Assembly: GCF_022669015.1 (NCBI RefSeq)
Contig: NZ_JAKKSL010000002.1
Coordinates: 682,001-746,000, forward strand
Direction of reading: 5' to 3'
DNA: 64,000 nucleotides
From: Colwellia maritima
GTDB lineage: Bacteria > Pseudomonadota > Gammaproteobacteria > Enterobacterales > Alteromonadaceae
A model generated the notes under the pieces. That model made no database searches. It was not told the origin of the DNA and was given only the letters and a program-made list of their open reading frames with translations. Within the stretch, counting starts at the first letter, position 1, and the number at the start of each line of letters is the position of its first letter. The translations under genes and the position numbers were made by a program. Of the stretch, positions 3,494 to 32,006 are shown piece by piece.

Positions 3494-5584
3494 ATGGAAA
3501 TGTATAAGATGGAACCGGGTAGTGCTTATCCTATAGGCACTACTGTAGACGGTTCTGGTGTGAATTTTTCATTATTTTCAGCTAATGCTGAAAAAGTAGA
3601 ATTGTGTATTTTTGATGATCTAGGTCAGCAAGAATTAATGCGCTTCACCCTGCCTTTATGTGAACATAATCTGTGGCATGGATACCTTAAAGGTGCAAAA
3701 GTAGGCCTTGTTTATGGTTACCGTGTATACGGACCTTATCGACCAGAATTCGGTCATCGTTTTAATCATCATAAATTGTTATTAGATCCTTATGCTAAAG
3801 CATTAACGGGTCGTTTTTCTTGGTCGGACCGTCATTTCGCTTATATAGTTGGTGATCCCAAAAAAGATTTATCTTTTGATGAAAGAGATAATGCCGATGT
3901 GATGTTTAAAGCGGTTGTTGTCGATCCCTCGGCTTCGGGAATACCAAGGAAGCCCATAGCTTGGCAAAATACTGTCATTTATGAAGGGCATGTTAAAGGT
4001 TTAACCGCAATTAATGACAAAATACCTAGCGAATTAAGGGGGTCATTTTTAGGAATAAGTCATCCCGCGATGATAGCGCATTATCGGGCTATTGGTATTA
4101 CTACAATTGAATTACTACCCGTTCAGCAGTTTATTTCAGAACAATTCCTAACAGATAAAAATTTGTCTAATTATTGGGGATATAACTCATTAGGTTTTTT
4201 TGTTCCCCATAAAGATTATCTAAATCAGCATCAAATCATTGAATTTCAACAAATGGTAGACCAATTACATCAAGCCGGATTTGAAGTCATTATTGATGTT
4301 GTCTACAACCATACGTGCGAAGGCAACTGGCTTGGTCCAACGTTAAGTTTTCGTGGTATAGACAATAAATCGTATTATCGATTAAATCCTACCGAGCCTC
4401 GCTATTATATTAATGATACAGGATGCGGTAATACCCTTAATATTAGTCATCCTCGTGTTTTGCAAATGGTTATGGATAGTTTGCGATATTGGGTAAATAT
4501 TATGGGTGTTGATGGCTTTAGATTTGATTTGGCGACGATTTTAGCGCGCGAAGTAACAGGGTTTGACCCAAGTAATGGCTTCTTAGATGCTATTTTACAA
4601 GATCCAGTGCTAGCAACGGTTAAGGTAATTGCTGAACCTTGGGATATTGGTCCTGGTGGCTATCAATTAGGTGCTTTTCAAAGACCTTGGTCTGAATGGA
4701 ATGACCAATACCGTGATGCTATTAAACGGTATTGGCGTGGTGATAAAGGTATGTTACCTGAATTTGCACGACGAATTCATGGATCTAGTGATATTTTTGA
4801 ACACAGTGGTCGCCAACCTTATGCGAGTATTAATTTTCTTTGTAGTCATGATGGCAATACCTTACGTGATTTAGTAAGTTACCAAAAGCGACATAACGAG
4901 GCCAATGGTGAAAATAACCGTGATGGACATTCCGAAAATTTTTCAAACAATTATGGCGTTGAAGGTGAAACTACTGACACTACAATTTTAGCAATACGTC
5001 TAAGGCAAATTAAAAATATGTTGACCACCTTGATGTTTTCTCAAGGGGTTCCTATGTTGCTTGCGGGTGATGAATTAGGACGTACACAACAGGGAAATAA
5101 TAATTCATATTGTCAAGACAATGAAATCAATTGGCTTAATTGGCAAGATAATTCAGCGTTTAGTGAAGAGCTTATACCGTTTGTTGCCAGTTTAAGCCAA
5201 TTAAGATCACGTTTTCCCATGTTAGCTTATCGTCGTTTTATCCATAAAGATGAGAAAGATTCTCAAGTAGGCATAACTTGGCTTCATCATTCTGGACTTC
5301 CTATGCTCAAAGATCACTGGCATGCGCATCATGAAGCAACGCTAGGCTATATGATACATGAAAAACCAGAAAATTCTCCTGTGCTTTTATGTTTATACCA
5401 TGCAGGAAAAGAGCCTATAGAATTTCAGTTACCAGAGATTGAAAATGTGACTCATTGGCAAGTTGTAATAGATACCAATGCTAGCGCTATTCAAACAGAA
5501 AAACGCCATTTAGCCGCCGAGCGGAAGTTAACTATGGTGCCTTTTTCAACTATAGTTTTATTACATGAACTCAATGATTGCTAA
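3494..5584 (+). CDS. glgX: Glycogen debranching enzyme (isoamylase-type GH13)
   Basis: Hydrolyses alpha-1,6 branches of phosphorylase-limit glycogen in the cytoplasm. The protein has 696 residues, close to GlgX/isoamylase length. An N-terminal CBM48 region (GTTVDGSGVNFSLFSANAEK) precedes the GH13 barrel with all four conserved regions: DVVYNHTCEG near 270, DGFRFDLAT near 340 with the nucleophile Asp, AEPWDIGPGG near 380 with the acid/base Glu, and CSHDGNTLRDLVSY near 450. The reading frame is intact. It is followed after 51 bases by glgP; together they supply short oligosaccharides to MalQ. An ATG at 3500 is an alternative start. Confidence 0.95.
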   Translation: MEMYKMEPGSAYPIGTTVDGSGVNFSLFSANAEKVELCIFDDLGQQELMRFTLPLCEHNLWHGYLKGAKVGLVYGYRVYGPYRPEFGHRFNHHKLLLDPYAKALTGRFSWSDRHFAYIVGDPKKDLSFDERDNADVMFKAVVVDPSASGIPRKPIAWQNTVIYEGHVKGLTAINDKIPSELRGSFLGISHPAMIAHYRAIGITTIELLPVQQFISEQFLTDKNLSNYWGYNSLGFFVPHKDYLNQHQIIEFQQMVDQLHQAGFEVIIDVVYNHTCEGNWLGPTLSFRGIDNKSYYRLNPTEPRYYINDTGCGNTLNISHPRVLQMVMDSLRYWVNIMGVDGFRFDLATILAREVTGFDPSNGFLDAILQDPVLATVKVIAEPWDIGPGGYQLGAFQRPWSEWNDQYRDAIKRYWRGDKGMLPEFARRIHGSSDIFEHSGRQPYASINFLCSHDGNTLRDLVSYQKRHNEANGENNRDGHSENFSNNYGVEGETTDTTILAIRLRQIKNMLTTLMFSQGVPMLLAGDELGRTQQGNNNSYCQDNEINWLNWQDNSAFSEELIPFVASLSQLRSRFPMLAYRRFIHKDEKDSQVGITWLHHSGLPMLKDHWHAHHEATLGYMIHEKPENSPVLLCLYHAGKEPIEFQLPEIENVTHWQVVIDTNASAIQTEKRHLAAERKLTMVPFSTIVLLHELNDC

Positions 5585-5635
5585 ACATGAATGTAAATAT
5601 TTACAGCAGTCATTATAAATAGGAGTTACTAACTC

Positions 5636-8098
5636 GTGAACAAAAAAAATACGCTATGTGAAATCGCTGAAACAGATAGCAGTGTATTAATGAATGATCA
5701 TACATTCTCTGAAGATTTGGCCCGTCATTTTCACTTTTCATTAGGCCGAGATACGGTACAAGAATCACATTTATACCTTTATAATGCGCTTGCCATTACC
5801 ATTCGTGATCGCTTAGTTGCACAATGGAGAAAAACGCGCACAGATAGAGTAGGGCAACGACGCGTAGCCTATATTTCACTTGAATTTTTAATGGGCAGAG
5901 CACTCAATAATGCTATTTTAAATTTAAACTTAGATGATACGGTACGTAAAACGTTAAACGACTATTGTTGTGAATTAGAAGAAGTAGAGCAAGCCGAACA
6001 TGATCTTGGTTTAGGTAATGGTGGTTTAGGGCGTTTGGCTGCTTGTTTTTTAGATAGTTGTGCCAGTTTAGCCTTGTCTGTTATTGGTTATGGCATTCGT
6101 TATGAATACGGCATGTTTAATCAACAAATTAAAAATGGTAATCAAGTTGAACACCCTGATAATTGGTTAAGACATGGTAATCCATGGGAAATACCCGCTC
6201 CAGAAAAAGCGGTTAGAGTGAAGTTCTTTGGCAATGTTGATGTGATTACCCAAAAAGATGGTAAACAATATAGACAATGGAATAACACTCATGATGTATT
6301 GGCTGTTCCTTATGATATGCCAATTCCGGGTTATCAAAATGGTATTGTTAACACATTAAGATTATGGAAGTCTGAAGCAACGGATGAATTTGATCTTGAT
6401 GAGTTTAATGCCGGTAGTTATACCGAAGCTGTAGCTCGAAAAAACCTTGCCGAACAAATCACCATGGTTTTGTATCCAAATGATACCAGTGAAAATGGTA
6501 AAGAATTACGTTTAAGACAACAATACTTTTTGTCTTCAGCGTCGCTTCAAGATGTAATAAACACACATATAGAAATACATGGTATCAATTTCGATAATTT
6601 TGTAGAGTTTAATGGCTTTCAATTAAACGACACGCATCCGAGTATAGCGGTTGCCGAGTTAATGCGAATTCTTATGGATGACTATGAAATTTCGTGGGAT
6701 AACGCATGGCAAATCACATCGCAAACCATGGCGTACACTAACCATACTTTATTACCAGAAGCACTTGAAAAATGGCCGGTAAGGTTATTTGAAAATCTTT
6801 TACCACGAATTTTAGACATTATTTACGAAATCAACGCCCGGTTTTTACTACAAGTTGCCGTTTGTTGGCCTGGCGATAACGAAAAACAACAAACGTTATC
6901 CCTGATTGAGGAAGGACCAGAGCCTCACGTAAGAATGGCACATTTAGCGATAGTAGGTAGTTATTCGGTTAATGGTGTTGCAGCTTTACACACGCAACTA
7001 CTAAAAGCAGGTTTGTTCAGTGATTTTTATAAACTATGGCCTGAAAAATTTAACAACAAAACCAATGGGGTTACACCCCGTCGCCGGTTGTCACATTGTA
7101 ACAAAAGCTTATCCACTTTAATTAGTAGTAAAATAGGTAAAGAATGGGTGGGTGATTTATCACAAATTGCCAAGTTATCTGAATATGCTGCTGATAAAAC
7201 TTTTCAAAAGGAATGGCAAGAAAGTAAATTAACCAACAAAATTGCCCTTGCTGACTTTGTTGAGCAATCAACAGGTGTAGTATTTGATGTCAACATGATG
7301 TTTGATGTTCAAGTCAAACGTATTCACGAATACAAACGTCAATTACTTAATATTTTACACGTTATCGGATTATATGACCGTATACGTAAGGGCGATACCG
7401 ACGATATTACACCGCGTTGTGTTCTAATTGGCGGTAAAGCTGCTCCGGGTTATGCTATGGCAAAACAGATTATTAAATTAATTAATAATGTTGCTGATAC
7501 TATTAACTTAGATCCTAAAGCATCACCGTACTTACGTGTCGCTTTTATTCCAAATTATAATGTATCAGCAATGGAAATTATCTGTCCGGCTACTGATTTA
7601 TCAGAACAAATTTCAACTGCCGGTAAAGAAGCTTCTGGCACGGGAAATATGAAATTTATGATGAACGGTGCATTAACTATTGGCACCTTAGACGGCGCTA
7701 ATATCGAAATTAGAGATGCGGTTGGAGAGGATAACTTTTTCCTTTTTGGTGCTCACGCTGATGAAGTAGCGACGATTAAAGCAAACTATCAACCCAATAA
7801 CATCATCGCAAATTCACCGACTTTATCTGCCGTGATGCAATTATTAGAAAGTGGTCATTTTAATTTATTTGAACCAAAGATCTTTGATTCAATTATTCAA
7901 ACCATTCGTGACCCACATGACATGTGGTTAACAGCTTATGATTTTGACACCTATTTTGAAGCCCAACGTAATGTAGACCAATTGTATAAAAATAAAACGT
8001 TGTGGACCCAAAAGAGTATTTTAAACACGGCGGCAAGCGGTGTGTTTTCGAGTGATCATACGATCAGGCAGTATCGAGATGAAATATGGAAGCTATAG
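5636..8098 (+). CDS. glgP: Glycogen/maltodextrin phosphorylase
   Basis: Releases glucose-1-phosphate from glycogen ends with pyridoxal phosphate as cofactor. The 820 residues match the GT35 family. Visible signatures are EFLMGRALNNA near 82, LGNGGLGRLAACFLDS near 128 and EASGTGNMKFMMNGALTIG near 665, which holds the PLP lysine. The start is GTG at 5636, supported by AGGAG ten bases upstream. The frame is intact, unlike many neighbours. The gene lies between glgX and glgC and is probably cotranscribed with glgX. Confidence 0.95.
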   Translation: MNKKNTLCEIAETDSSVLMNDHTFSEDLARHFHFSLGRDTVQESHLYLYNALAITIRDRLVAQWRKTRTDRVGQRRVAYISLEFLMGRALNNAILNLNLDDTVRKTLNDYCCELEEVEQAEHDLGLGNGGLGRLAACFLDSCASLALSVIGYGIRYEYGMFNQQIKNGNQVEHPDNWLRHGNPWEIPAPEKAVRVKFFGNVDVITQKDGKQYRQWNNTHDVLAVPYDMPIPGYQNGIVNTLRLWKSEATDEFDLDEFNAGSYTEAVARKNLAEQITMVLYPNDTSENGKELRLRQQYFLSSASLQDVINTHIEIHGINFDNFVEFNGFQLNDTHPSIAVAELMRILMDDYEISWDNAWQITSQTMAYTNHTLLPEALEKWPVRLFENLLPRILDIIYEINARFLLQVAVCWPGDNEKQQTLSLIEEGPEPHVRMAHLAIVGSYSVNGVAALHTQLLKAGLFSDFYKLWPEKFNNKTNGVTPRRRLSHCNKSLSTLISSKIGKEWVGDLSQIAKLSEYAADKTFQKEWQESKLTNKIALADFVEQSTGVVFDVNMMFDVQVKRIHEYKRQLLNILHVIGLYDRIRKGDTDDITPRCVLIGGKAAPGYAMAKQIIKLINNVADTINLDPKASPYLRVAFIPNYNVSAMEIICPATDLSEQISTAGKEASGTGNMKFMMNGALTIGTLDGANIEIRDAVGEDNFFLFGAHADEVATIKANYQPNNIIANSPTLSAVMQLLESGHFNLFEPKIFDSIIQTIRDPHDMWLTAYDFDTYFEAQRNVDQLYKNKTLWTQKSILNTAASGVFSSDHTIRQYRDEIWKL

Positions 8099-8105
8099 TT
8101 AAATA

Positions 8106-8184
8106 ATACCAGTTTCATAAATTAAGTGATCTATTTGGTGATATTAGCAAGTAGAAATGATCATGGAGTTAGTGAGATTGATAT
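8106..8184. repeat. Short dispersed repeat with ATACCA terminal inverted ends (copy B)
   Basis: A 79-base element between glgP and glgC that starts ATACCAGTTTCATAAATTAA and ends GAGATTGATAT. It shares start, internal AAGTGATCTATTT, GTAGAAATGATCA and end with the copy at 451-520, with a different middle. It lies within a glycogen operon, so it may affect read-through from glgP to glgC. Confidence 0.6.
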
Positions 8185-8247
8185 AAGTGAACTAAATAAA
8201 TAGGCATGTTTTATTGCTTGTTAAATACAGTTTGTAAAGGAGGCACT

Positions 8248-9511
8248 ATGCCCAAATATGAAGAAAGAAGAATTAGTAGTTTAACAAAAGAAACGTATGC
8301 GCTGATTTTAGGCGGCGGGCGTGGTTCTAGGTTGTTTGAACTAACTGATAAAAGAGCAAAACCAACTACTTTTTTTGGTGGTAAGTTTAGAATCATCGAT
8401 TTTCCTTTATCAAATTGCATTAACTCTGGCATAAGACGCGTAGGTATTGCTACTCAATACAAATCTCATTCACTCATTCGTCACGTCAATCGCGGTCGTG
8501 GGACACTTCAAGAAAGAATTGGGTGAATCAATTGAAATTCTTCAAAGATCACAGCAAAAAGGCGATGGTTGGTATTTAGGTACAGCCAATGCTGTTTTTC
8601 AAAATATCGATATTATCAGACATGAATTACCAAAATATGTCATGATTTTATCGGGTGATCATGTTTATAGAATGGATTATGGTCCATTACTAGCTGAACA
8701 TGTTGCTAACGGTGCAGATATGACAGTGTGTTGTATTGAAGTACCTGTTGCTGAAGCTGTTGGATCCTTTGGTGTAATGACTGTGGATGAAGATAACCGT
8801 GTATGTCGGTTTGATGAAAAACCGGCTGTTCCATCTGAAGTACCAGGTAAACCAGGTATGACTTTGGCCTCCATGGGTAATTACATTTTCAACACTGAGT
8901 TCTTATTTGAACAATTAGAAAAAGATGCGGCTCAAGAAGCATCAAGTGGCGATTTTGGAAATGATATTATTCCAAAAATCATTGAATCCCACCGTGTGTT
9001 TGCCTATCCATTTAAAGATCCTGATAGTAGCAGGCAGCCATATTGGCGCGATGTAGGTACACTCGATTCATTTTGGGAAGCGAATATGGAATTAGTCACG
9101 CCTGTGCCTCAACTTGATATGTATGACGAAAATTGGCCTATTTGGACTTTCCAAGAACAAACTGCGCCGGCCAAGTTCGTGTTTGACCAAGATAATAGAC
9201 GAGGTATTGCCATTGATTCTACTGTTTCCGGCGGAGTTGTTGTTTCTGGCTCAACGGTTAAACGGTCTTTGTTGTTTTCAAAAGTGCGTATTAATTCGTA
9301 CTGTGATATTGACGAAGCCGTTATATTGCCCAGTGTTGTGGTAAATCGTAATTGTAAAATTAAAAAAGCCATTATCGATCGCAGCTGTGAAATTCCAGAA
9401 GGTATGGTGATTGGTTATAACCATGACGATGACCGTGCTAATGGCTTTAGAGTAACAGACAAAGGCGTGGTTTTGGTTACGCGAAGTATGATTATGGCTA
9501 TGGATAAATAA
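8248..9511 (+). CDS. glgC: Glucose-1-phosphate adenylyltransferase (ADP-glucose pyrophosphorylase), frameshifted
   Basis: Makes ADP-glucose from ATP and glucose-1-phosphate, the committed step of glycogen synthesis. The start ATG at 8248 is preceded by AAAGGAGG. Residues 19-34 give the nucleotidyltransferase loop ([20 protein letters not shown]), then [16 protein letters not shown]; later come [31 protein letters not shown] and a left-handed beta-helix C-terminus ([16 protein letters not shown]). Total length is about 420 residues as expected. The frame shifts near 8495-8502: HVNRG is followed by RGTLQERIG and a stop, while the next frame continues [14 protein letters not shown]. An extra base is the simplest cause, probably a sequence error. 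Confidence 0.92.
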
Positions 9512-9625
9512 GCCAATGATACATGTTCAGGTTTTTTCTGAACGTGAAAATCAACGCTCTTACTATCTATTGAATAATTGACATTGATTTTCAACACTGA
9601 TTTACCGGTATATTAGGAAAATATA

Positions 9626-11873
9626 ATGAATAATCTCGCATTAAGTTTGTTGAATGCTGAAGACCTAACTGCATTAATTAATGCCCGACATCAAGACGTT
9701 TTTTCTGTACTTGGCATACATAAACATCCAACTGAAAACGGCTTAATTGTGAGAGCATTTTTGCCAGAAGCGTTGAGTGTTGAGGTAATTGATTGTAAAA
9801 CTAATCAATGTGTTGCCGCTTTATCTTTAGTGGATACTGCAGGGCTTTTTGAAGGGAAGCTTGGCCGCCGTAGAAACGTATTTACTTATCGATTAAGAGT
9901 TTGTTATAAAAATGACACCCTATTAATTGATGACCCTTATCAGTTCCCATCTCTGCTTAATCAAGATGACTTGTATCTTTTTTGCGAAGGAACTCATGAG
10001 CATGTCTATCAATGGATGGGTTCACATCAAATAACTTTTAATAAGGTTAGTGGTACGCATTTTGTCGTATGGGCACCTGAAGCGACGCGTGTTTCTGTTG
10101 TCGGAGATTTTAATTTTTGGGATGGCAGACATCATGTTATGCGTAAACATATCGCTGCAGGTGTTTGGGAGATTTTTATTCCTAATATCCCAATGAATAG
10201 CGCATACAAATACGAAATTCTTGATGCCAATGGTCATATTCAACCGTTAAAGGCTGACCCCTATGCAGTATCGATGCAGCATCCACCTGAAACTGCTTCT
10301 AAGGTTATCGCCACAAAACCGTATCAATGGCAAGACACGCAATGGATGCAAACAAGAGCTTCTTCCATTAATCATTATCATGGTCCGGTTTCCATATACG
10401 AAGTGCATTTAGGTTCATGGCGAAGAAATCATCAAGACGGACATAGTGAATTACACAATAAATATTTAACTTATCGTGAACTTGCTGAACAATTAATTCC
10501 CTATGTGCTTGATATGGGGTTCACCCATCTACAGCTTATGCCAGTAAGTGAATATCCGTTTGATGGCTCTTGGGGCTATCAACCTGTTGGACTGTTTGCG
10601 CCGACCTCCCGTTTTGGTAATGCTGAAGATTTTAAATACTTTGTAGATTGTTGCCATCAAGCAGGGCTTGGTTTATTGCTTGATTGGGTACCAGGCCATT
10701 TTCCTACTGATGCTTATGGTACGGGTAAATTCGATGGTTCATGTTTATATGAGCATCAAGATTTACGCAAAGGTTTTCATCCAGACTGGCAAACACTTAT
10801 CTATAACTATGGCCGAGCAGAAGTGCAAAGCTATTTAATTAGTAATGCAATTTATTGGTTAGATCAATTCCACATTGACGGTTTACGTGTCGATGCTGTT
10901 GCCTCCATGTTGTATCTAGATTACAGCAGAGAAGACGGTGAATGGTTGCCTAATCACCATGGGGGACGTGAAAATTTAGAAGCCATTAATTTACTACAAC
11001 AGGTAAATAGCCGAGCCTATTTTAACTACCCTGGGGTAATGATGATTGCTGAAGAGTCAACTGCTTGGCCTGGTGTTTCCCAACCTGTGGATAATGGCGG
11101 TTTAGGTTTTGGCTTTAAATGGAATATGGGTTGGATGAATGACACCTTGTCATATATGAAACGAGACCCTATTCATCGGTCTCATCATCATAACGAAATG
11201 ACGTTTAGTTTGGTTTATAGTTTCAGTGAAAACTTTGTTTTACCTATCAGCCATGACGAAGTAGTACACGGCAAAGGGTCACTACTGACTAAAATGCCCG
11301 GTGATGAATGGCAAAAGTTTGCTAACCTGCGTGCCTATTATGGCTTTATGTGGACACATCCAGGCAAAAAACTTCTTTTCATGGGCTGTGAATTTGCGCA
11401 GTGGAATGAATGGAACCATGATCAAAGCCTTGATTGGCATTTGCTAAACGATGATCACCAAAATAAACATCGCGGTGTTCAGCAATTGATAAAAGACCTA
11501 AATCATTGCTATCGTAACATTCCTTCCCTTTACGAACTTGACTGTGACAGCAGTGGTTTTCAATGGCTTGATTCACAAAACAGCGAACAGTCGATTTTAA
11601 TCTATTTACGTCAAGGAAAAGAAGGGAGTGCTCCAAACTTTAGTTGTTGTAAATTTAACACCAACAACGTATAAAAATTACTGTGTGGGTGTACCTGAAC
11701 CGGGGTTTTATCGTGAATGCTTGAACACCGACAGTGCCCAATATGGTGGAAGTAATATAGGTAATAACGGCGGTGTTGAAACGCAAGATAAACCTTATGT
11801 TGGGCAATCAAATCAATTAAGTTTATCAATTCCGCCGTTGGCAACGTTAATATTTGAATTACAAAATCGATAA
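9626..11873 (+). CDS. glgB: 1,4-alpha-glucan branching enzyme, frameshifted near the C-terminus
   Basis: Introduces alpha-1,6 branches into glycogen. The protein has two N-terminal beta domains ([13 protein letters not shown], then [20 protein letters not shown] as CBM48) and a GH13 barrel with [16 protein letters not shown] near 305, [16 protein letters not shown] near 418 with the nucleophile, AEESTAW near 474 and [11 protein letters not shown] near 541. The first frame ends at 11674 after [10 protein letters not shown]; a one-base shift near 11625-11635 restores [17 protein letters not shown] and the rest of the C-terminal beta domain to 11873. Total about 748 residues, normal for GlgB. 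The start has AGGAAA upstream. Confidence 0.93.
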
Positions 11874-21016: not shown

Positions 21017-22293
21017 ATGTCGCGTTTTATTTCTGCTTGTTTTTTTGTGTTGTTTTTTTGTAGTTCAGCCCGCAGTGAAACAACCCCACCCGTTATAGTT
21101 TTATTGTCCATTGATGGTTTTGCTTATGAGTATATTCATAAGCATCAACCACCGAACATTTTAGCTTTATCAAAATTAGGTATTTCGGCTAAGCTTGCAT
21201 CGGTGTATCCAAGTAAAACCTTCCCAAATCATTTGTCGATTATTACTGGCAAATATCCCATACATCATGGCATTACGAACAATGCTTTTTATAGTCCAGA
21301 AATAGGCCAACACTATAAATTAGGGGCGGGTAAAAAAAATGCTGCTTGGTTAAAAGCCGATCCTTTGTGGACAGTAGCTGAACAACAAGGCTTGAAAACC
21401 GCCGTGTACTTTTGGCCAGAGTCTGAAGCGTTAGGCAAACAACCAACCTATAACATTCCTTTTAATACAAAAGACTCTAACCAAAAGCGCTTTGATCAAA
21501 TTTTACAATGGTTAGCATTACCTGATGAACAGCGTCCACGTTTAATTGTAAGTTACTTTTCAACGGTTGACAGTGCAGGGCACACTTATGGGCCAAACTC
21601 AAAAGAAGTAGAGCAATCAGTACAAGAAATTGATTCTTTAATTGGTAAATTCATTGCTAAACTATCGGCAGATAATAATGATGACATTACACTTATTCTC
21701 GTATCAGACCATGGCATGATGGAGAAAGACAAAAACAAACTGATTAAACCCTCTACAACTTTTGATGCTTCTATACAAAATTTAATTAAAACCAAAGCCA
21801 TTACTATGGCTAAAAATGATACCCAACTCTATCTATATTTTACCCCACCTAAATCAAATAATTTAGACCCCTCAGATGTACTAAGTCGTTTAAAGGTTAT
21901 CGCTGAAACAAAACATAATAAAAATCTATATCACATTTATTCTAAAGGAAATTACCCAAAACATTGGCAGTTAAATACTGACAGTCCCCTTGTGCCAGAT
22001 ATTATAATTGAAGCAATACCACCAAAGCAACGTTTATAAAAGAAGCGGTTGATATAAAGACTATGCACATGGGAATGGGTACCCATGGATATGATCCATT
22101 CAAACAAAATGAATTATTAGGTATATTTATTGCGGTAGGTCCTGACATATCACAATCAAAAGAAATTTTAACCTTTGAAAATGTACATCTTTTTCCTTTT
22201 TTAAGTAAATTACTTAACCTTCAAGAGGTTAATAGTGTTGATGGTACAGGAGAAATGTTAATGCCTTATATTAAAGAGAAGGTAAAACCTTAA
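21017..22293 (+). CDS. Nucleotide pyrophosphatase/phosphodiesterase-family protein (alkaline phosphatase superfamily), frameshifted
   Basis: Secreted two-metal phosphodiesterase. A signal peptide (MSRFISACFFVLFFCSSARS) precedes the NPP core: VLLSIDGFAYEYI with the first metal Asp, VYPSKTFPNHLSIITG with the nucleophile Thr, STVDSAGHTYGPNS and LVSDHGMM with metal ligands, and GTHGYDP with the last His. The frame breaks at an A-run at 22024-22026: adding one A restores PPKATFIKEAVDIKTMHMG through to 22293. About 425 residues, normal for bacterial NPP-like enzymes. It probably releases phosphate or nucleotides from extracellular substrates. Confidence 0.87.
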
Positions 22294-24840: not shown

Positions 24841-24858
24841 GGTAATTAACAGGTTTAT

Positions 24859-25449
24859 ATGTCTAATAATTTTTATAATGAAAATGCTACTAGTTTTTTT
24901 AATGATACTGTTGAAGCAGATTTATCACCTATTTATCAACAATTTTTACCGCTAGTTAAAAGCGGATCTCATATTCTTGATCTTGGTTGTGGTTCAGGCC
25001 GAGATACTTTATTTTTCATCAATCAAGGTTATCAAGTAACAGCGTTTGATGCGTGTGAAGCGTTAACCGCTAAAGCAAGTGAATACACGGGAATAAATGT
25101 TACATTAAATACATTTGAAAATTTTAACAGTAAGTCACCAGAATGTTTATATGATGCTATATGGGCGTGTGCATCGTTACTTCATGTACCAAGTAATAAG
25201 ATATCAGGCTCTTTCAAAAACCTAGCTAATCAATTGAAAATAGATGGTGTTTTTTATTGTTCTTTTAAATATGGAGATAATGATATTACTCGAAACGGTC
25301 GATATTTTACTAATGCAAATGAATCAAGGTTAAATGAGTTTATTAAAAATACTGGGTTAGTGATAGATAGAACTTGGATAACAGAAGATGTACGGCCTAA
25401 TCGTCATGGTGAAAAATGGCTAAATGCAATATTGATTAAAGTAGCATAA
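24859..25449 (+). CDS. Class I SAM-dependent methyltransferase
   Basis: 196-residue cytoplasmic methyltransferase. Motif I is HILDLGCGSGRDTLFF near 38, the acidic residue after beta 2 is in VTAFDACEA, and motif IV reads AIWACASLLHVP. There is no DPPY/NPPF motif, so it is not a typical DNA amino-methyltransferase; small-molecule, thiopurine- or TehB-like activity is more likely. It ends 7 bases before the reconstructed ATG of the large nuclease-helicase gene, so the two may be translated together. Confidence 0.8.
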   Translation: MSNNFYNENATSFFNDTVEADLSPIYQQFLPLVKSGSHILDLGCGSGRDTLFFINQGYQVTAFDACEALTAKASEYTGINVTLNTFENFNSKSPECLYDAIWACASLLHVPSNKISGSFKNLANQLKIDGVFYCSFKYGDNDITRNGRYFTNANESRLNEFIKNTGLVIDRTWITEDVRPNRHGEKWLNAILIKVA

Positions 25450-25455
25450 ATCTTC

Positions 25456-28400
25456 ATGACTTTACTTAAGATTGATAGCTTATTAGCAAGCTATAATTAC
25501 ACCCTATCAGAAGTGGTTTCAGTCGGCCGTCTCTACTTAAATAAGTGCGCAAGTAAAAATAAGCCGCAATTTTAATTGATACAACACTTTACGATTTATT
25601 AATTGCAGACTTTCAATATGTTGATTATACAAGCTATCAAAATAAAGTGATGCATCAATATAATGGTTTATATCGTTTTTTAGGAACCGATATAGCACTT
25701 TTAAAAGCTGAGTTAGCATTATTTTTATCTGGAGGTATTGAAGAATTAGAGTTGAAAATATATGGATCTGACCGTAGCGAAACTCATATTGACCCAACAC
25801 CTCCAGAATTTAACTTTGCCGTTTCATTTGAAAAAGTATTTGGTGCAAAACACATTTATGCCTTGCAAGCTGAAGCTCCCTATGTGGATCGCCAAGGCCA
25901 CCGACGTTATATTGATTATGTGTTACATCGTAACTCAACACCTATCGCGATAGAGCTTAATGGTGAACAATATCATCACCCATTATCGGCTATTGTCTCT
26001 GAAAAAAAATATCGTTCGCAGCTGTTTAAACAAAACTCATTAGTCAATGATGGATACCGCGTTTTTCGTTGGTCAAATAGAGGCATGCAAGATGACTTTA
26101 AATTTGAAGATCAAATAAAAGAATATTTCGGTGACAAGCAAGGGTTTCAATCAGCGCCATTATATCGAGCTGAACGCACAATAGACTTTTCTTTATATGA
26201 ACACCAAGCAACTGCAGTTAAGTCATTACAAGAAAAAGATCGAACGGCAATCAAACCTTTTTAATTGTTCTACCGCCAGGAACAGGGAAAACAGAAGTTT
26301 TTATTGAGGATTTTAGGCAAGAATTTTCGAAAGGGTTTGGTTAAAAGAGCATTAGCGATAGTGCCAAGTACAGAACTAAAAAAGCAGCTTATTAAACGAA
26401 TTATCGTGCAATTAAAGGAGATTAACGTTGGCGAAGACTTTTACGATGAAACACTCGATGTCATTGTTCAAACGAGTGCTTATGTTTTAAGGCACTACAG
26501 AAGTCATGTTTCTACTCATTTCGATTATATTTTAGTAGATGAAGCTCATCGTGCTGCAGCACATGGTTTGCGCAATGTCTTAGAATATTATAATCCTCAA
26601 AATCTTTTAGGGTTAACAGCAACAGACCGTTTAGATCAACAAAGGTTGGAAGATATTTTTGGCAGTTATCAAATTAACTTGTCTTTGGAAGAGGCAATTA
26701 AACAGAAATTAATACCGCAGATTAGAGCATTTAGATTACAGTCGAATATTGACCTTTCCAGTGTACGCTTTAACGGCAAAGAATTTGTTAAAAGTGATTT
26801 GCAAAAGTCGGTGCAAGTACCGTCTCGTGATCAATTAGTTGTTGATCTGTTAGTAAAGTATTTCTCAGCCAGTCATTCTAATAGCCACACTAATGAATCA
26901 CTACAAACAAAACAGGGCGTAATATTTTGTGTCGATATTAAACACGCCAAACGCATGTCAGCTCTACTGAATCAACATGGCGTAAAGTCTGCTTCAGTGC
27001 ATGGCACAAACAGGAAAGGCTTAGATGAGTACAAGCAGGGCGCTATACAATTTTTATGTGCTTGTGATTTGATAAATGAAGGGTGGGATGCACCCCAAAC
27101 ATCAGTAATTGTTATGGCAAGGCCAACCATGTCAAAGGTGTTATATACTCAACAACTTGGCAGAGGAACTCGTAACCACCCTGATAAAGAAGCACTTTAT
27201 GTTATTGATGTAGTTGATAGCTACAGCTCAGCGTTGCAACCATGGTCAGTTCATAGTCTATTCAATTTTGGCATGTACCACCATTTGGCGATTTAGTCAG
27301 AAATGTTGAAGGAACCCCTAATCGTGAGCTAATTATTTTGGATGGTTTATGGGAAACAGAGCGCCGATTAGAGCCAATTAATATATTTAACTTTGAGCAA
27401 GAGTTTGGCCATTTAATGAATGAAGAACAATTAGCGAGAGAGCTTTTTGTCTCTACATCAACAATTAAGTCTTGGTTAAAAAAACAAGAGATTAGTGCAT
27501 ATAGAACACTACCTTTTGGCAATAAAACACTTAATTACTTTTCTGAAGAACAATTGTTAATAATCAAAAAAGAAAAAAACATCAAAGATAGAACCGAAAA
27601 AACGCGTAAATTAGACTTCTATGAGTTTTTAGACAAAAAAGATTATACATTTTCTTATAAAATTATTTTTCTATTGGCAATGGTTAATCACTGTAATAAC
27701 CGTGGTGAACTTAATATTGATAATTTGGTTAAAAAGTACCAACAATTTTATCAAGATTTATTGACAAAATTTGGAAGAGCTGAAAAACAGGGTAACCCAC
27801 TTAATAAAACAAGTAACTTAAGTAATATTAATTATTTGAAAAAAAGCATAAGAGAAAATCCATTTGAAAAGTTTGAACGTAAGCGTTTCTTTTATCAGTG
27901 CAAAGATCTCAATATTATTTCATTTGATTCAGTGCTTTGGGAGAATTTAGAGTCAGCTGAACTCACCAAAATAACAGAACAGATGATTAAAGATGGTATA
28001 AATTACTTTAATAAAATTGATATAGAACTATCGCGCGAAGATTTCAATGTATTACTCAACCACACAGCTAAAGGGAATATAGCTAAATTTGTCAGACCTG
28101 TAGAATCTGTTCCTAAGGATAATGTAGCAGTAATTGAAGATGAAACTATTTCAGGTTTATATTTGCCATTTTATCAAAACCTTAAAATTGCTTGTGGCCA
28201 TTTTAAAACCAACCAACATGACGAGGTTGAAATGCATTTCATTGCCGATACAGCTCACAGTTTTGGAAAGTTAAATCCCGATATACATTTTGTTGCCACA
28301 GCGTCAGGCAATTCAATGAACGGTGGTAAAGCGCCAATTGAAGACGGAGATTTATTATTACTTGAATGGATCACACCAAATAATGCAGGCTCTATTTCCG

Positions 28401-28585
28401 GTTTAACAATGGCAATAGAAACTCAAGATGAAACTGGAGACGATCAATATTTACTACGAGTTGTTAAAAAGCAGGCCAATGGAAGCTATTCACTTATCGC
28501 TAATAATCCTGATTACCCAAGTATGTTGGCAAATGACCAAATGACTACTTTTGCCAGGTTGAAAGCGGTTTTAAAAGATATATAA
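25456..28585 (+). CDS. Large nuclease-helicase-HTH-S24 (LexA/UmuD-like) fusion protein, frameshifted
   Basis: Reconstructed as one gene of about 1040 residues. The start ATG at 25456 opens MTLLKIDSLLASYNYTLSEV. Single-base breaks lie at a T-run (25570-25573), a T-run (26258-26262), TTT (26336-26338) and CC (27278-27279); undoing each gives one continuous protein. Order: about 130-215, a PD-(D/E)XK-like nuclease of the DUF559/Vsr kind (RRYIDYVL, PIAIELNGEQYHH, GYRVFRWSNRG); about 250-600, an SF2 helicase (LPPGTGKTE, ILVDEAHRA, LGLTATDRL, FLCACDLINEGWD, QQLGRGTRN); about 650-690, a MerR-like HTH (ARELFVSTSTIKSWLK); then a region ending NPFEKFERKRFFY; about 900-1040, an S24 domain with IACGHF, ATASGNSMNGG and YLLRVVKKQ. 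Likely a DNA-damage or defence factor; not a named system I recognise. Confidence 0.75.
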
Positions 28586-29200: not shown

Positions 29201-29868
29201 ATGAAAAGGAAAAAACTAGCATTGATAGTTGGGCTATTTTTTATCGGTAGTAGCCAAACCGTATTTGCAGAAAACTTTAACGATGTATGTAGTAACACCA
29301 TTGAAGGTGCAAACATAGGTATGTCAAAAGAAGAAGTTCAATCAACTTGGCAACACGCGGCTTTGAAAATAGTAAACAAAAAAAACACAAATTATCTAAA
29401 CACCCAGAATCAATACAGTCGTTACTTTTTCAAACTGAAGACCGTCAACCTAATGAAAATTTTGTAAAGTTGCTAGGTTGGAAACAGATACTTTCAAATG
29501 ATAACCGACGTATTTTTGCTAACTATGTTGCACCTAAAGACCCTAGCAAAATTGAGGCATACGAAACGTTTTACCGTGCAAAGCTAACAGCTTTTTGCGA
29601 ATATAATATAGAAACATTGCGTGAAACAGAGCCGGCTGTACGAGCTACTCGTGCTTCTCGAATGAATCCTAATCCGAAATCAGCTGTTCACGAGTTTTGC
29701 GAAAACGCCTTAAAAGGTGAGTTTCGCACTGACAGCAATGGCCATGCTCATCCACCACCGCATGGTTTGAGCATCACCAATGCACAAGGGTGTAGAGTAA
29801 GCATTTCTAACCTCAATTTAAGAGGTTACAAAGCGGCTTTTACTGTGAGTATTGAGAACAACCAATAA
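29201..29868 (+). CDS. Small secreted protein of unknown function, frameshifted
   Basis: A signal peptide (MKRKKLALIVGLFFIGSSQT, then VFA before ENF) precedes a mature protein of about 195 residues. The first frame runs to WQHA; a one-base shift near 29355-29360 continues in GFENSKQKKHKLSKHPES and ends ISNLNLRGYKAAFTVSIENN. Four cysteines (in DVCSNT, TAFCEYN, HEFCENA and QGCRVS) suggest two disulfides in the periplasm. The family is not recognised. The start has AGGAGC upstream. Confidence 0.6.
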
Positions 29869-29977: not shown

Positions 29978-30054
29978 TGGTCGGAGTAGCAAGATTCGAA
30001 CTTGCGACCTCACGTCCCCCAGACGCACGCGCTACCAAGCTGCGCTATACCCCG
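29978..30054 (-). tRNA. tRNA-Pro, anticodon GGG
   Basis: 77 bases on the minus strand fold into a full cloverleaf: acceptor CGGGGTA/TACTCCG with one G-T pair, D arm GCGC/GCGC, anticodon stem TGCGT/ACGTG with two wobble pairs, loop CTGGGGG giving anticodon GGG, T arm GCAAG/CTTGC with TTCGAAT, discriminator A and an encoded CCA. C1-G72 and A73 are proline identity features. It reads CCC and, with wobble, CCU codons. Confidence 0.97.
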
Positions 30055-30258: not shown

Positions 30259-32006
30259 TTATTCATTTACGTTTTCTAGCATTTGTTTACTAAAACGCTT
30301 GATAAAATGCACACCATCAATCATTAACGGAAAATCTTTATTTACGGTGATCGGGGCAGCTAATTGACTTGAGTAACTTTGAAAATTACCATTTTGGTCA
30401 ATCAATACTGATTTATCTTTATTAAAAACCATTAAACCATTCGCTGAGGTATTGGCAATAACACGATCTCGATTTAAGCTAAGTAAGTCTGTGCCATTAC
30501 TGTAGTTTTTATTGTCATGAGAACAATTCAACCAATTTGTCATTAATGTTGATTGCAAGTCCATATGACTTGTTAGTTTGTTAATTACGGCTCTACTGCT
30601 ATCACGTTGTGAGGTGGTAGCAGGGGCAATCAACAACGCAGGTTTAGTTGATAACTGTGTCTCGTTCGTTTGATTACCTATTGAACTGATCCATATAATG
30701 TCTTTTTGTTGTTTTTGCTTTTGTGCTAACAGTAAAGCATCTACAAACAATGAAAACTGATAGTCATTACTGATGGTTTTTTCGCTGTTGTCGTTTTCTT
30801 TACCGCTTTTAAAATATATAACATGTAGCCCGGCTTTCTTCGTGTTTAACTTATTTGAAAAAATTGGTGGATATATCATTTAGCTGATATTGCTCGTCAA
30901 ATAAACCAGTAAACCATTGTTCTTCATTTTCATTGCTTTGCTCAGTATCTGCGTTGCTGTTTGAATCAACCAGAGTAAAGGAGGTTGCCATGTTTTGTTG
31001 TTCAATCGCTTGAAATAATAACGGTTTAATTTGCTGTGTTAAAATATCTTGCTGATAAATACTGGGTAATGAATAGAATAAATTAAACCAAGCATCATTA
31101 AGCAAGGCTGAATCAACATGGTTATTAAATTGATAATTGTTACTGTTTGTTCTGTTGCTAAAGTTTTGCAATTGTAGCGCTGTTAATTGCTCATCCGTTA
31201 ATATAATAAACACAGACTGCTCAGTATTAGCGTTAGTACATTGCTTGTCTATACTAGGATATTGCGGAATAGCATGACTAAAAGACAATGGGCTCGTGGT
31301 ACGCTCTTTATAGGCGTCAATATCAAATAAACCGTATTTGGTTAATAAGGTTTGTGCTGTTGCAGGGTAAGACAAAGGTAAAACGGTGTCTTGACGTAAT
31401 ATATCGTAATCTAAATTAGCATCTGCCCATATATGGGTAAGATGGCTAAAGAAAAATGAAACGACCAAGCGCAAAAATAACGAAACGAGCAAACACGGTT
31501 TTTTGTAATTTTTTTAAATGCTTCCAAGCATAGTTACTTACCGTGAATTCATAACCCAAAATCATAATGGCAAACATGCCGCTTAATGTATAAAAAGCAA
31601 CACTTTCTTGTGCTATTTCTTTGATTAAACTAAATATTTGGCTGCTTGATGAGGCATTTAAATGATAACCTAAACGGCTATAAATAAATCCATCTAGCAG
31701 TAAGAGTAGTAAACCAAAGGTGAAAATAATTGAACCGCTGATCCTAATGACTTTGGTGTTAGGCCAAACGATAGTTAACGGAAATAGCAGCAATACAAAG
31801 CTCATAAAGGTTAAAAACGCAATATGGCTTACCCAGGTAGTAATTAAATAGGCCTGACCTAATAAAGTGTCTGGTGCTGTTTCACTAAAAAGATAGTAAG
31901 AGGAAAGGGCGATTGCGGCAATAATATTAAAAAAAGTAAACCAATGGCTCCAACTGATTAAATGTAAAAGTTTTTTGCTATAGGTTTTTGTATCAAAAGA
32001 GACCAT
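30259..32006 (-). CDS. yejM: Inner-membrane LPS-regulatory protein LapC/PbgA (YejM family), frameshifted twice
   Basis: YejM senses periplasmic LPS and restrains LapB/FtsH degradation of LpxC. The N-terminus has about five membrane helices after LHLISWSHWFTFFNI, the DUF3413 block, then HIWADANLDYDI and LPLSYPATAQTLLTKYGL, all close to the enteric protein. The periplasmic sulfatase-like domain lacks the metal and nucleophile residues, as in YejM. Breaks near 31466-31472 and in an A-run at 30858-30863 split the gene; with both repaired it is about 582 residues, equal to the family length. Lethality of loss in enteric bacteria argues for sequence error. It is 40 bases after yejL, the conserved gene order. 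Confidence 0.9.

What the first reader, a model, noticed from the sequence alone, without database searches (positions are those of the whole stretch)
25456..28585. One gene joins a DUF559/Vsr-like nuclease, an SF2 helicase, a MerR-like HTH and a UmuD/LexA-like S24 domain
Seen: after repair of four single-base breaks, one continuous frame of about 1040 codons runs from ATG 25456. The order is a nuclease-like motif (RRYIDYVL, PIAIELNGEQYHH, FRWSNRG), a full helicase set (PPGTGKT, DEAH, LTATDR, QQLGRGTRN), a MerR-type HTH, a region ending NPFEKFERKRFFY, and an S24 domain (ATASGNSMNGG). Known: S24 domains in LexA and UmuD are triggered by RecA filaments; nuclease plus SF2 helicase is a common defence or repair plan. 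Inference: a DNA-processing factor whose activity is set by DNA damage through its S24 tail, perhaps a single-gene defence or repair system. I do not recognise this exact set as a named system.
Basis: partly seen in the sequence, partly recalled or inferred. Interest (0 to 1): 0.85.

Follow-up and report, generated by a model that had tools for sequence, protein, structure and literature searches.

The report
Swappable nuclease with LexA-like tail
A marine Colwellia bacterium carries a two-gene cassette, a small methyltransferase plus a large DNA-cutting motor protein that ends in a LexA-like tail whose catalytic lysine is replaced by arginine, and relatives attach the same kind of tail and methyltransferase to other types of nuclease, which suggests a defence-type system whose cutting part is exchangeable.

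Summary
In detail: six intact relatives carry the whole chain in one frame (PD-(D/E)XK-like nuclease, SF2 helicase, HTH/helical region, S24 domain). The breaks in the window look like assembly errors. The reading needs three changes. (1) It is not a single-gene system. A TehB-like methyltransferase gene (24859-25449) precedes it; these two genes are the only DNA shared with two other Colwellia loci, and 72 of 80 named tail genes have this methyltransferase adjacent or fused (0 of 314 control ORFs match it). (2) The tail has the LexA/lambda-repressor fold, the Cys-Gly junction and the serine, but the dyad lysine is arginine in 28 of 28 tails (Lys in 49 of 50 ordinary S24 domains), so LexA-style self-cleavage cannot be assumed. 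(3) The tail is portable: it caps three nuclease types (PD-(D/E)XK-helicase, SauUSI-like PLD-helicase, HNH), and in one genus all three sit between closely related methyltransferase and tail sequences. Best reading: a restriction/defence cassette with exchangeable heads and a tail that reads RecA filaments without ordinary LexA cleavage. The RecA link is untested; a purely structural tail remains possible.

The parts
24859..25449 (+). TehB-like class I SAM methyltransferase gene, 196 aa, first gene of the cassette; 6 nt before the second gene
   Evidence: Pfam Methyltransf_25 7e-11, TehB 2e-9; PDB nearest 3e23 and TehB 2xva among others, no DNA methyltransferase among the 60 of 66 matches shown; same kind of gene adjacent or fused in 72 of 80 named loci
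25456..28585 (+). nuclease-helicase-HTH-S24 gene, intact in relatives (1038-1058 aa), broken by about four frame changes in this assembly
25611..26130 (+). about: N-terminal region with PD-(D/E)XK-like (DUF559/MTES_1575-type) nuclease motifs; IDYV to QYHH lies at 25911-25979
   Evidence: motif residues invariant in 9 of 9 class A relatives; MTES_1575 5 of 9 sub-threshold, 4e-7 in L155, none in L217; hhalign to a DUF559/MTES set P 4e-4, probability 35%
26184..27293 (+). about: SF2 helicase/translocase core
   Evidence: ResIII 1e-12, Helicase_C 7e-10; nearest PDB chain 7clg, E 2e-33 for intact relative L033 (7CLG is SauUSI)
27395..27570 (+). about: MerR/HTH_17-like helix-turn-helix
   Evidence: MerR_1 6 of 9, best 0.0021; HTH_17 3 of 9, best 0.0021; RacA 5i41 0.021
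27571..28060 (+). about: conserved region with PFEKFERK (invariant in 9 of 9), in the position of SauUSI's coupler
   Evidence: alignment A2; position by analogy with SauUSI; no credible Pfam domain
28160..28585 (+). S24 (LexA-fold) tail; Cys-Gly junction at 28193-28198, Ser codon 28313-28315, Arg codon at the LexA Lys156 position 28457-28459
   Evidence: Pfam 1e-7; AlphaFold pLDDT 87, pTM 0.83; Foldseek; VIA Z 15.1 to LexA 1jhe and lambda CI 8gmu over residues 1-140; residue counts

Best explanation
It is a mobile two-gene restriction/defence-type cassette. Gene 1 is a small SAM methyltransferase of unknown substrate. Gene 2 is an ATP-driven nuclease laid out like SauUSI (nuclease, SF2 motor, coupler, recognition tail), with a different nuclease at the front and a LexA-fold tail where SauUSI has its modified-base reader. 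Proposed working: the tail docks on RecA-ssDNA filaments formed on damaged, invading or recombining DNA and so brings the motor-nuclease to DNA in trouble, or holds it there. Because the dyad lysine is arginine, docking is not followed by ordinary fast self-cleavage. The nuclease head is exchangeable between the constant methyltransferase and tail. Shown here: the fusion, the LexA fold with scissile Gly and Ser kept and Lys replaced, the methyltransferase pairing, the head exchange, a defence-like neighbourhood of relatives. Inferred: the restriction/defence role (about 70%) and RecA-filament docking (about 40%).
For: One-ORF relatives. Helicase nearest to 7clg, which is SauUSI. LexA/lambda-CI fold including the cleavage segment, best matches the LexA L89P/Q92W/E152A/K156A mutant and lambda CI in complex with RecA, Z 15.1 each. 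Arg for Lys in 28 of 28 tails against Lys in 49 of 50 ordinary S24, and Arg in 80 of 80 named tails. PMC3834820 (passages seen): LexA K156A is non-cleavable and its C-terminal domain was the only protein of those assayed with stable binding to RecA filaments, so loss of the lysine can give a filament-gripping domain. Methyltransferase adjacent (51) or fused (21) in 80 named loci; 0 of 314 control ORFs match it. Only the two genes are shared by DNA with two other Colwellia loci. Related flanking methyltransferase and tail, three different nuclease heads; 8 class changes on the tail tree. Neighbours rich in PADLOC families (against 65).
Against: No direct evidence of RecA binding. Nuclease profile scores are sub-threshold in this clade and absent in L217. 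The methyltransferase substrate is unknown. Five class A relatives (L037-L041) and gut record L217 lack the tail yet keep the methyltransferase, so the core works without the tail and defence need not involve RecA. L155 (class A core, no tail) shows no methyltransferase among the ORFs listed upstream (by inspection). Arg for Lys could simply mean a dead, structural domain. No SOS-box excess.
Confidence: 0.4

Rival explanations
1. The tail is an active but slow autoprotease. RecA filaments make it cut at Cys-Gly, separating the tail from the nuclease, either to switch the nuclease off when the host's own DNA is damaged (built-in restriction alleviation) or to release it.
For: Scissile Gly, Ser and the whole cleavage segment are kept and the model aligns over the cleavage segment with cleavable-form LexA 1jhe. 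A pure docking domain has no obvious need for an invariant junction. Recalled, not seen in any call: LexA with Arg at 156 is said to keep some RecA-dependent cleavage.
Against: The Lys is Arg in 28 of 28 and 80 of 80 tails; LexA K156A is non-cleavable (PMC3834820). Literature searches aimed at an Arg variant of LexA gave nothing usable in their listings.
Confidence: 0.22
2. The tail is only a dimerisation or scaffolding domain, as LexA-fold C-terminal domains are in repressors, with no RecA link; it pairs two nuclease chains.
For: The phage 186 repressor C-terminal domain has the same fold (Z 9.6); SauUSI is a dimer (abstract and passages of PMC7913695); the Lys is lost.
Against: The cleavage junction and Ser stay invariant, which dimerisation alone does not explain; in SauUSI the nuclease domains, not the tail, hold the dimer; tail-less class A nucleases exist.
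Confidence: 0.25
3. A DNA-repair factor of the host rather than a defence system.
For: Helicase similarity to RadD and XPB; LexA-like tail.
Against: Patchy (tail piece matched in 37 of 295 genomes of the family, weak and partial matches included; tail profile in 9 of 369 of the class, two weakly); no shared flanks in the two Colwellia loci compared; neighbours rich in PADLOC families; heads exchanged.
Confidence: 0.08
4. An ordinary modification-dependent (type IV) or restriction-modification enzyme in which the S24 domain has become the target-recognition domain for modified DNA and the methyltransferase is the protective partner.
For: Class B relatives are SauUSI-like (PADLOC mREase_IV in the three scanned, E 3e-87 to 8e-115) and some keep DUF3427 next to the S24 domain (L048, L062); the S24 tail sits where SauUSI has its reader domain.
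Against: The window protein has no PLD and no DUF3427 match; the methyltransferase resembles TehB and other small-molecule enzymes; the known fold is a protease fold, not a base reader.
Confidence: 0.15

Closest known systems
[quoted passage not shown]
   Same: Nuclease, SF2 translocase, helical coupler, C-terminal recognition domain in one chain; nearest solved helicase. Class B relatives of this cassette score as mREase_IV.
   Different: Window protein has a DUF559-type nuclease in place of PLD and a LexA-fold tail in place of the SRA/DUF3427 reader; it is paired with a methyltransferase.
LexA / lambda CI / UmuD (S24, RecA-stimulated self-cleaving proteins)
   Same: Fold, Ser, scissile Gly, with Cys before it as in UmuD (E. 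coli sequences recalled).
   Different: Arg at the catalytic Lys position; tail of a nuclease-helicase, not of a repressor or polymerase subunit.
Phage 186 repressor C-terminal domain
   Same: LexA-like fold, Z 9.6.
   Different: A repressor; our tails keep Ser and the cleavage junction.
DUF559 / MTES_1575 (Vsr-like PD-(D/E)XK) nucleases
   Same: D..E motif region; MTES_1575 4e-7 in distant class A relative L155.
   Different: Sub-threshold in the window's clade; much longer multidomain chain.
TehB-type methyltransferases
   Same: Family of gene 1.
   Different: Here a near-constant partner of nucleases; its substrate is unknown.

Membership tests
LexA/UmuD-type S24 self-cleaving proteins | LexA C-terminal fold | tested here: met
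   pLDDT 87 model; all 24 PDB matches at E<=1e-3 are LexA or lambda repressor; VIA Z 15.1
LexA/UmuD-type S24 self-cleaving proteins | nucleophilic Ser | tested here: met
   28 of 28 tails, 80 of 80 named tails (retrieval pattern favours it)
LexA/UmuD-type S24 self-cleaving proteins | (A/C)-G cleavage junction | tested here: met
   C-G 28 of 28; C 79 (one R) and G 80 of 80 (retrieval pattern favours it)
LexA/UmuD-type S24 self-cleaving proteins | general-base Lys | tested here: not met
   Arg 28 of 28; control S24 Lys 49 of 50
LexA/UmuD-type S24 self-cleaving proteins | RecA-stimulated self-cleavage | not testable with these tools
   needs protein
SauUSI-type type IV restriction enzymes | SF2 translocase of this type | tested here: met
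   7clg best PDB match, E 2e-33
SauUSI-type type IV restriction enzymes | N-terminal PLD nuclease | tested here: not met
   no PLD match in the window pieces or in class A proteins L033 and L041; present in the four class B proteins scanned
SauUSI-type type IV restriction enzymes | DUF3427/SRA reader domain | tested here: not met
   no DUF3427 match in window pieces, L033 or L041; S24 tail in that position
SauUSI-type type IV restriction enzymes | cleaves modified DNA only | not testable with these tools
   needs enzyme assay
Restriction-modification system | DNA methyltransferase partner | tested here: inconclusive
   methyltransferase present, but relatives named in the PDB and NCBIfam results are TehB and small-molecule or protein enzymes
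DUF559/MTES_1575 PD-(D/E)XK nucleases | profile match over the curated cut-off | tested here: inconclusive
   5 of 9 sub-threshold, best 0.013; 4e-7 but 30.3 bits against a cut-off of 38.2 in L155, none in L217
Known anti-phage defence system (PADLOC) | match to a named system over the whole chain | tested here: not met
   class A protein and window pieces match mREase_IV and others through the helicase only
MADS (mad1/mad2) | mad2-type methyltransferase and mad1 | tested here: inconclusive
   gene 1 matches mad2 at 1e-13, but 5 of 135 control ORFs match mad2 too; window tail piece matches mad1 only at 0.008

The most novel reading that the evidence does not exclude
A family of defence cassettes in which a constant methyltransferase and a constant LexA-fold tail frame an exchangeable nuclease, and in which evolution has fixed Lys-to-Arg in the LexA catalytic dyad to turn an SOS self-destruct switch into a RecA-filament-reading guide: nucleases aimed at DNA by the host's recombination filament rather than by sequence or base modification.
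Probability: 0.28. Interest if true: 0.9.

Novelty: new variant of a known kind. Interest (0 to 1): 0.72.

Why it matters
LexA-fold domains are known as RecA-triggered self-cleaving switches of repressors and of a repair polymerase. Here one is a portable tail on three types of nuclease, with the catalytic lysine replaced by arginine in every tail aligned, while the cleavage junction and serine are kept. If it reads RecA filaments, it would be a direct link between bacterial DNA-damage sensing and restriction-type immunity, and a natural case that tests what the lysine is for. The head exchange between related partners also gives a natural experiment for asking which part of a defence cassette senses and which part kills.

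Tried and rejected
Full-length AlphaFold model of an intact relative: pLDDT 42, unusable, so no claim is made on domain packing; model coordinates were not at hand for measuring dyad distances. SOS-box scan upstream of the cassette: 2 exact hits in 106 (shuffle mean 0.44, maximum 3), both the same locus under two ids; 15 with up to one mismatch against 10 in shuffles: no excess claimed. Solved-structure profile search for the nuclease region: no match up to E 10. Core-gene tree of class A: 3 changes of tail presence, but one origin is not excluded and two branches are very long, so repeated transfer is claimed from the tail tree and the locus comparison only. On the tail tree the classes are clustered, not random (8 changes against a shuffled mean of 17.4). 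The 268-nt block downstream of the exchanged loci is a dispersed repeat and is not counted as synteny. tRNA at six of these loci: none. Viral collection: 14 relatives of class A, 13 of them aligned only within the helicase region; 1 tail. Methyltransferase as mad2 of MADS: matches, but so do 5 of 135 control ORFs.

Literature: no paper on an S24-nuclease-helicase fusion appeared in the listings of searches (of 37 and 63 papers in the last two, 15 and 12 were listed). Passages were seen in PMC3874153, PMC7159879, PMC12839542, PMC3834820 and PMC7913695; no paper was read whole. Only open-licence PMC papers are held, so this is weak evidence of absence.

Limits of the controls: the PADLOC neighbour comparison counts families, not proteins; several models hit one protein; 135 of about 400 neighbours were sampled from 100 loci, some of which are the same contig under two ids; the control ORFs come from 5 chromosomes at chosen round coordinates. 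In the S24 control the reading frame was picked by a GxS(M/F/L) pattern, so the control's Ser count is built in; the Lys count is not. The 80 named loci were fetched with patterns for the junction and Ser motifs, which favours those motifs but not the Arg.

Rows dropped: L065 (spurious weak hit) and the 69-aa tail fragment of L035/L140 from tail counts; the tail tree used 89 rows after near-duplicates and tail genes with an unknown head (ORF under 700 aa, other than class C) were left out; the structure alignment used 68 of 81 available tails. Nuclease classes of the 27 family tails rest on BLAST, length and clustering; Pfam was run on two class A, four class B and four class C proteins.
Full report
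WHAT IS THERE. The region 25456-28585 has no open frame throughout, but the pieces match, in order, a single ORF of 1038-1058 aa in six distinct relatives: L033 (the same contig as L066, Colwellia sp. E2M01), L034, L035 (the same as L140, Marinifaba), L036, L067 (Colwellia MAG) and L110 (Shewanella). The breaks are most simply assembly errors: another gene of the same window, a DUF3413 protein, is split over two frames, and a relative of the upstream gene elsewhere in this genome also matches in two pieces.

DOMAINS. The helicase is certain (ResIII 3e-28 in the intact relative; nearest solved chain 7clg, which PMC7913695 gives as SauUSI, passages seen). The S24 domain is certain (Pfam 1e-7; model pLDDT 87; all 24 PDB matches at E<=1e-3 are LexA or lambda repressor; VIA Z 15.1 over residues 1-140). 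The HTH is MerR- or HTH_17-like but weak (MerR_1 6 of 9, best E 0.0021; RacA 0.021). The nuclease is probable, not certain: D, ELNGE, HH, SQL and KQNSL are invariant in 9 of 9; MTES_1575 is sub-threshold in 5 of 9, 4e-7 in the distant relative L155 and absent in L217; hhalign gives P 4e-4 but a probability of only 35% to a set of DUF559/MTES domains, and nothing for the HTH/helical region as a control; no solved structure matches the region.

THE METHYLTRANSFERASE. A 196-aa TehB-like methyltransferase gene (24859-25449) ends 6 nt before the second gene. DNA comparison of the whole window with two other Colwellia loci finds one shared block each, 24869-28573 (L066, 20.4 kb held) and 24854-28585 (L067, 14.5 kb held, only 0.8 kb of it upstream): these two genes and no flanks. 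In 33 large loci from the family search, 31 hold this methyltransferase; by coordinates it lies just upstream (29), fused (L061) or just downstream (L062). The misses are a contig that starts inside the gene (L063) and a spurious hit (L065). Of 80 named tail genes, 51 have it just upstream, 21 fused at the N-terminus, 1 downstream on the other strand, 2 lie at contig edges and 5 have none by this test; two of these 5 (L081, L118) have a methyltransferase further upstream and a short tail ORF. 0 of 314 control ORFs match. Tail-less class A relatives keep it too (L037-L041), and so does a 12.7-kb record from human faeces labelled as a phage (L217: methyltransferase 42% and nuclease 36% identical, next to a GmrSD_N gene). 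L155, a class A core on a viral contig, shows none among the ORFs listed upstream. NUDIX domains join in some loci (L061, Pfam; L143, BLAST; L057, by inspection of the sequence). The named relatives of gene 1 are TehB and other small-molecule or protein methyltransferases, so it is not clearly a DNA methyltransferase.

THE TAIL IS SHARED. The S24 tail, at 54-66% identity to the window's, also ends, or lies near the end of, two other nuclease classes: class B, PLD nuclease plus SF2 helicase with or without DUF3427 (12 of 27 tails in the family loci), and class C, an HNH protein of 507-536 aa (11 of 27); class A has 4 of 27. Classes rest on BLAST, length and clustering, with Pfam run on ten examples. 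Classes A and B share a distantly related helicase (about 31% identity); class C has none. The genome-contig collection holds 279 relatives of the tail, best 80 kept. In 369 genomes of the class 9 match, two of them weakly. PADLOC calls the three class B proteins scanned mREase_IV.

HEADS ARE EXCHANGED. In one genus (group code g19) L036 (class A), L056 (class B) and L058 (class C) share the methyltransferase (76-85% DNA, 77-90% protein identity) and the tail (87-92% DNA, 94-97% protein), with no DNA match between the nuclease heads. L056 and L058 also share 1.3 kb of upstream flank at 92%, though it lies about 4.8 kb from the methyltransferase in L056 and 0.65 kb in L058. A tree of 89 tails needs 8 changes of class where 2 would be the least; starred branches alone force 7, 5 and 4 changes for B, C and A. 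The classes are still clustered (shuffled mean 17.4), and with 136 columns many forks are open. The window's tail lies in a starred set of 9: three Colwellia class A tails and six Shewanella class B tails.

THE ARGININE. At the position of LexA Lys156 the tails read Arg in 28 of 28 (27 family loci plus the window); 50 ordinary S24 domains from the same order (30 best hits, LexA-like, and 20 others) read Lys in 49 and Tyr in 1. Ser is 28 of 28; in the control it is 50 of 50, but there the frame was chosen by a Ser pattern. The scissile Gly is 28 of 28 against 48 of 50 with 2 gaps. The 80 named tails read Arg 80 of 80, Ser 80 of 80, Cys 79 and Gly 80 of 80; these were fetched with patterns that favour the junction and Ser motifs but not the Arg. 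PMC3834820 (passages seen) reports that LexA K156A is non-cleavable and that its C-terminal domain was the only protein of those assayed with stable binding to RecA filaments. This makes a non-cleaving RecA-filament reader a concrete hypothesis, though Arg is not Ala.

HOW IT MOST LIKELY WORKS. By analogy with SauUSI (nuclease, SF2 motor, coupler, recognition domain), the tail takes the place of the recognition domain. I propose that it directs or holds the motor-nuclease at RecA filaments, with the methyltransferase as a near-constant partner of unknown substrate. Shown: architecture, pairing, exchange, Arg. Inferred: restriction or defence (sampled neighbours match 300 PADLOC families against 6 for an equal number of control ORFs; patchy spread) and RecA docking. 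Results against: no SOS-box excess, tail-less relatives that keep the methyltransferase, weak nuclease scores, and no experiment.

NOVELTY. The parts are known; the combination, the portable K-to-R LexA tail and the head exchange did not appear in the listings of the literature searches made. I file it as a new variant of a known kind.

Noticed in passing
L140:13124-13333 (same as L035:12625-12834): A second, partial copy of the S24 tail (69 aa) about 4 kb downstream of the full gene, as if left by a recombination or head-exchange event.
   Followed up: no
L217 (MT836124.1) 5537-10511: Record labelled 'Bacteriophage sp.' carries a GmrSD_N gene, the methyltransferase and a tail-less class A nuclease, and by inspection a transporter-like gene; it looks like a bacterial defence island rather than a phage.
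   Followed up: partly
L220:292-996 with L220:1189-3738: An ordinary XRE-S24 repressor (with the catalytic Lys) lies next to a class A gene whose own S24 tail is cut short.
   Followed up: partly
L080, L088, L099, L102, L113 and others (21 of 80 named loci): In Pseudomonas, Azotobacter, Thauera and relatives the methyltransferase, the class B head and the S24 tail are one chain, mostly near 1290 aa (BLAST; NCBIfam and PADLOC scans of L080).
   Followed up: partly
L057, L061, L143: A NUDIX (MutT-like) domain fused to the methyltransferase, in L061 to the whole nuclease chain (1292 aa).
   Followed up: no
L036:7979-8246, L056:8867-9134, L058:16839-17096: A 268-nt repeat, about 92% alike, shortly downstream of the cassette in three loci, with further copies nearby in L036 and L056.
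   Followed up: partly
window 30854-32006 (-): DUF3413 gene split across two frames, a sign of a frameshift-rich assembly; other window genes (21017-22293, 29201-29868) may be split too.
   Followed up: partly
window 29978-30054 (-): tRNA-Pro(ggg) 1.4 kb downstream of the cassette; not shown to be an integration site.
   Followed up: no
L039:2783-9089 and L047:2-3641: Three adjacent genes shared by these two loci (one tail-less class A, one class C; clusters); by size and order they look like a type I restriction set, but no individual family result was seen.
   Followed up: no
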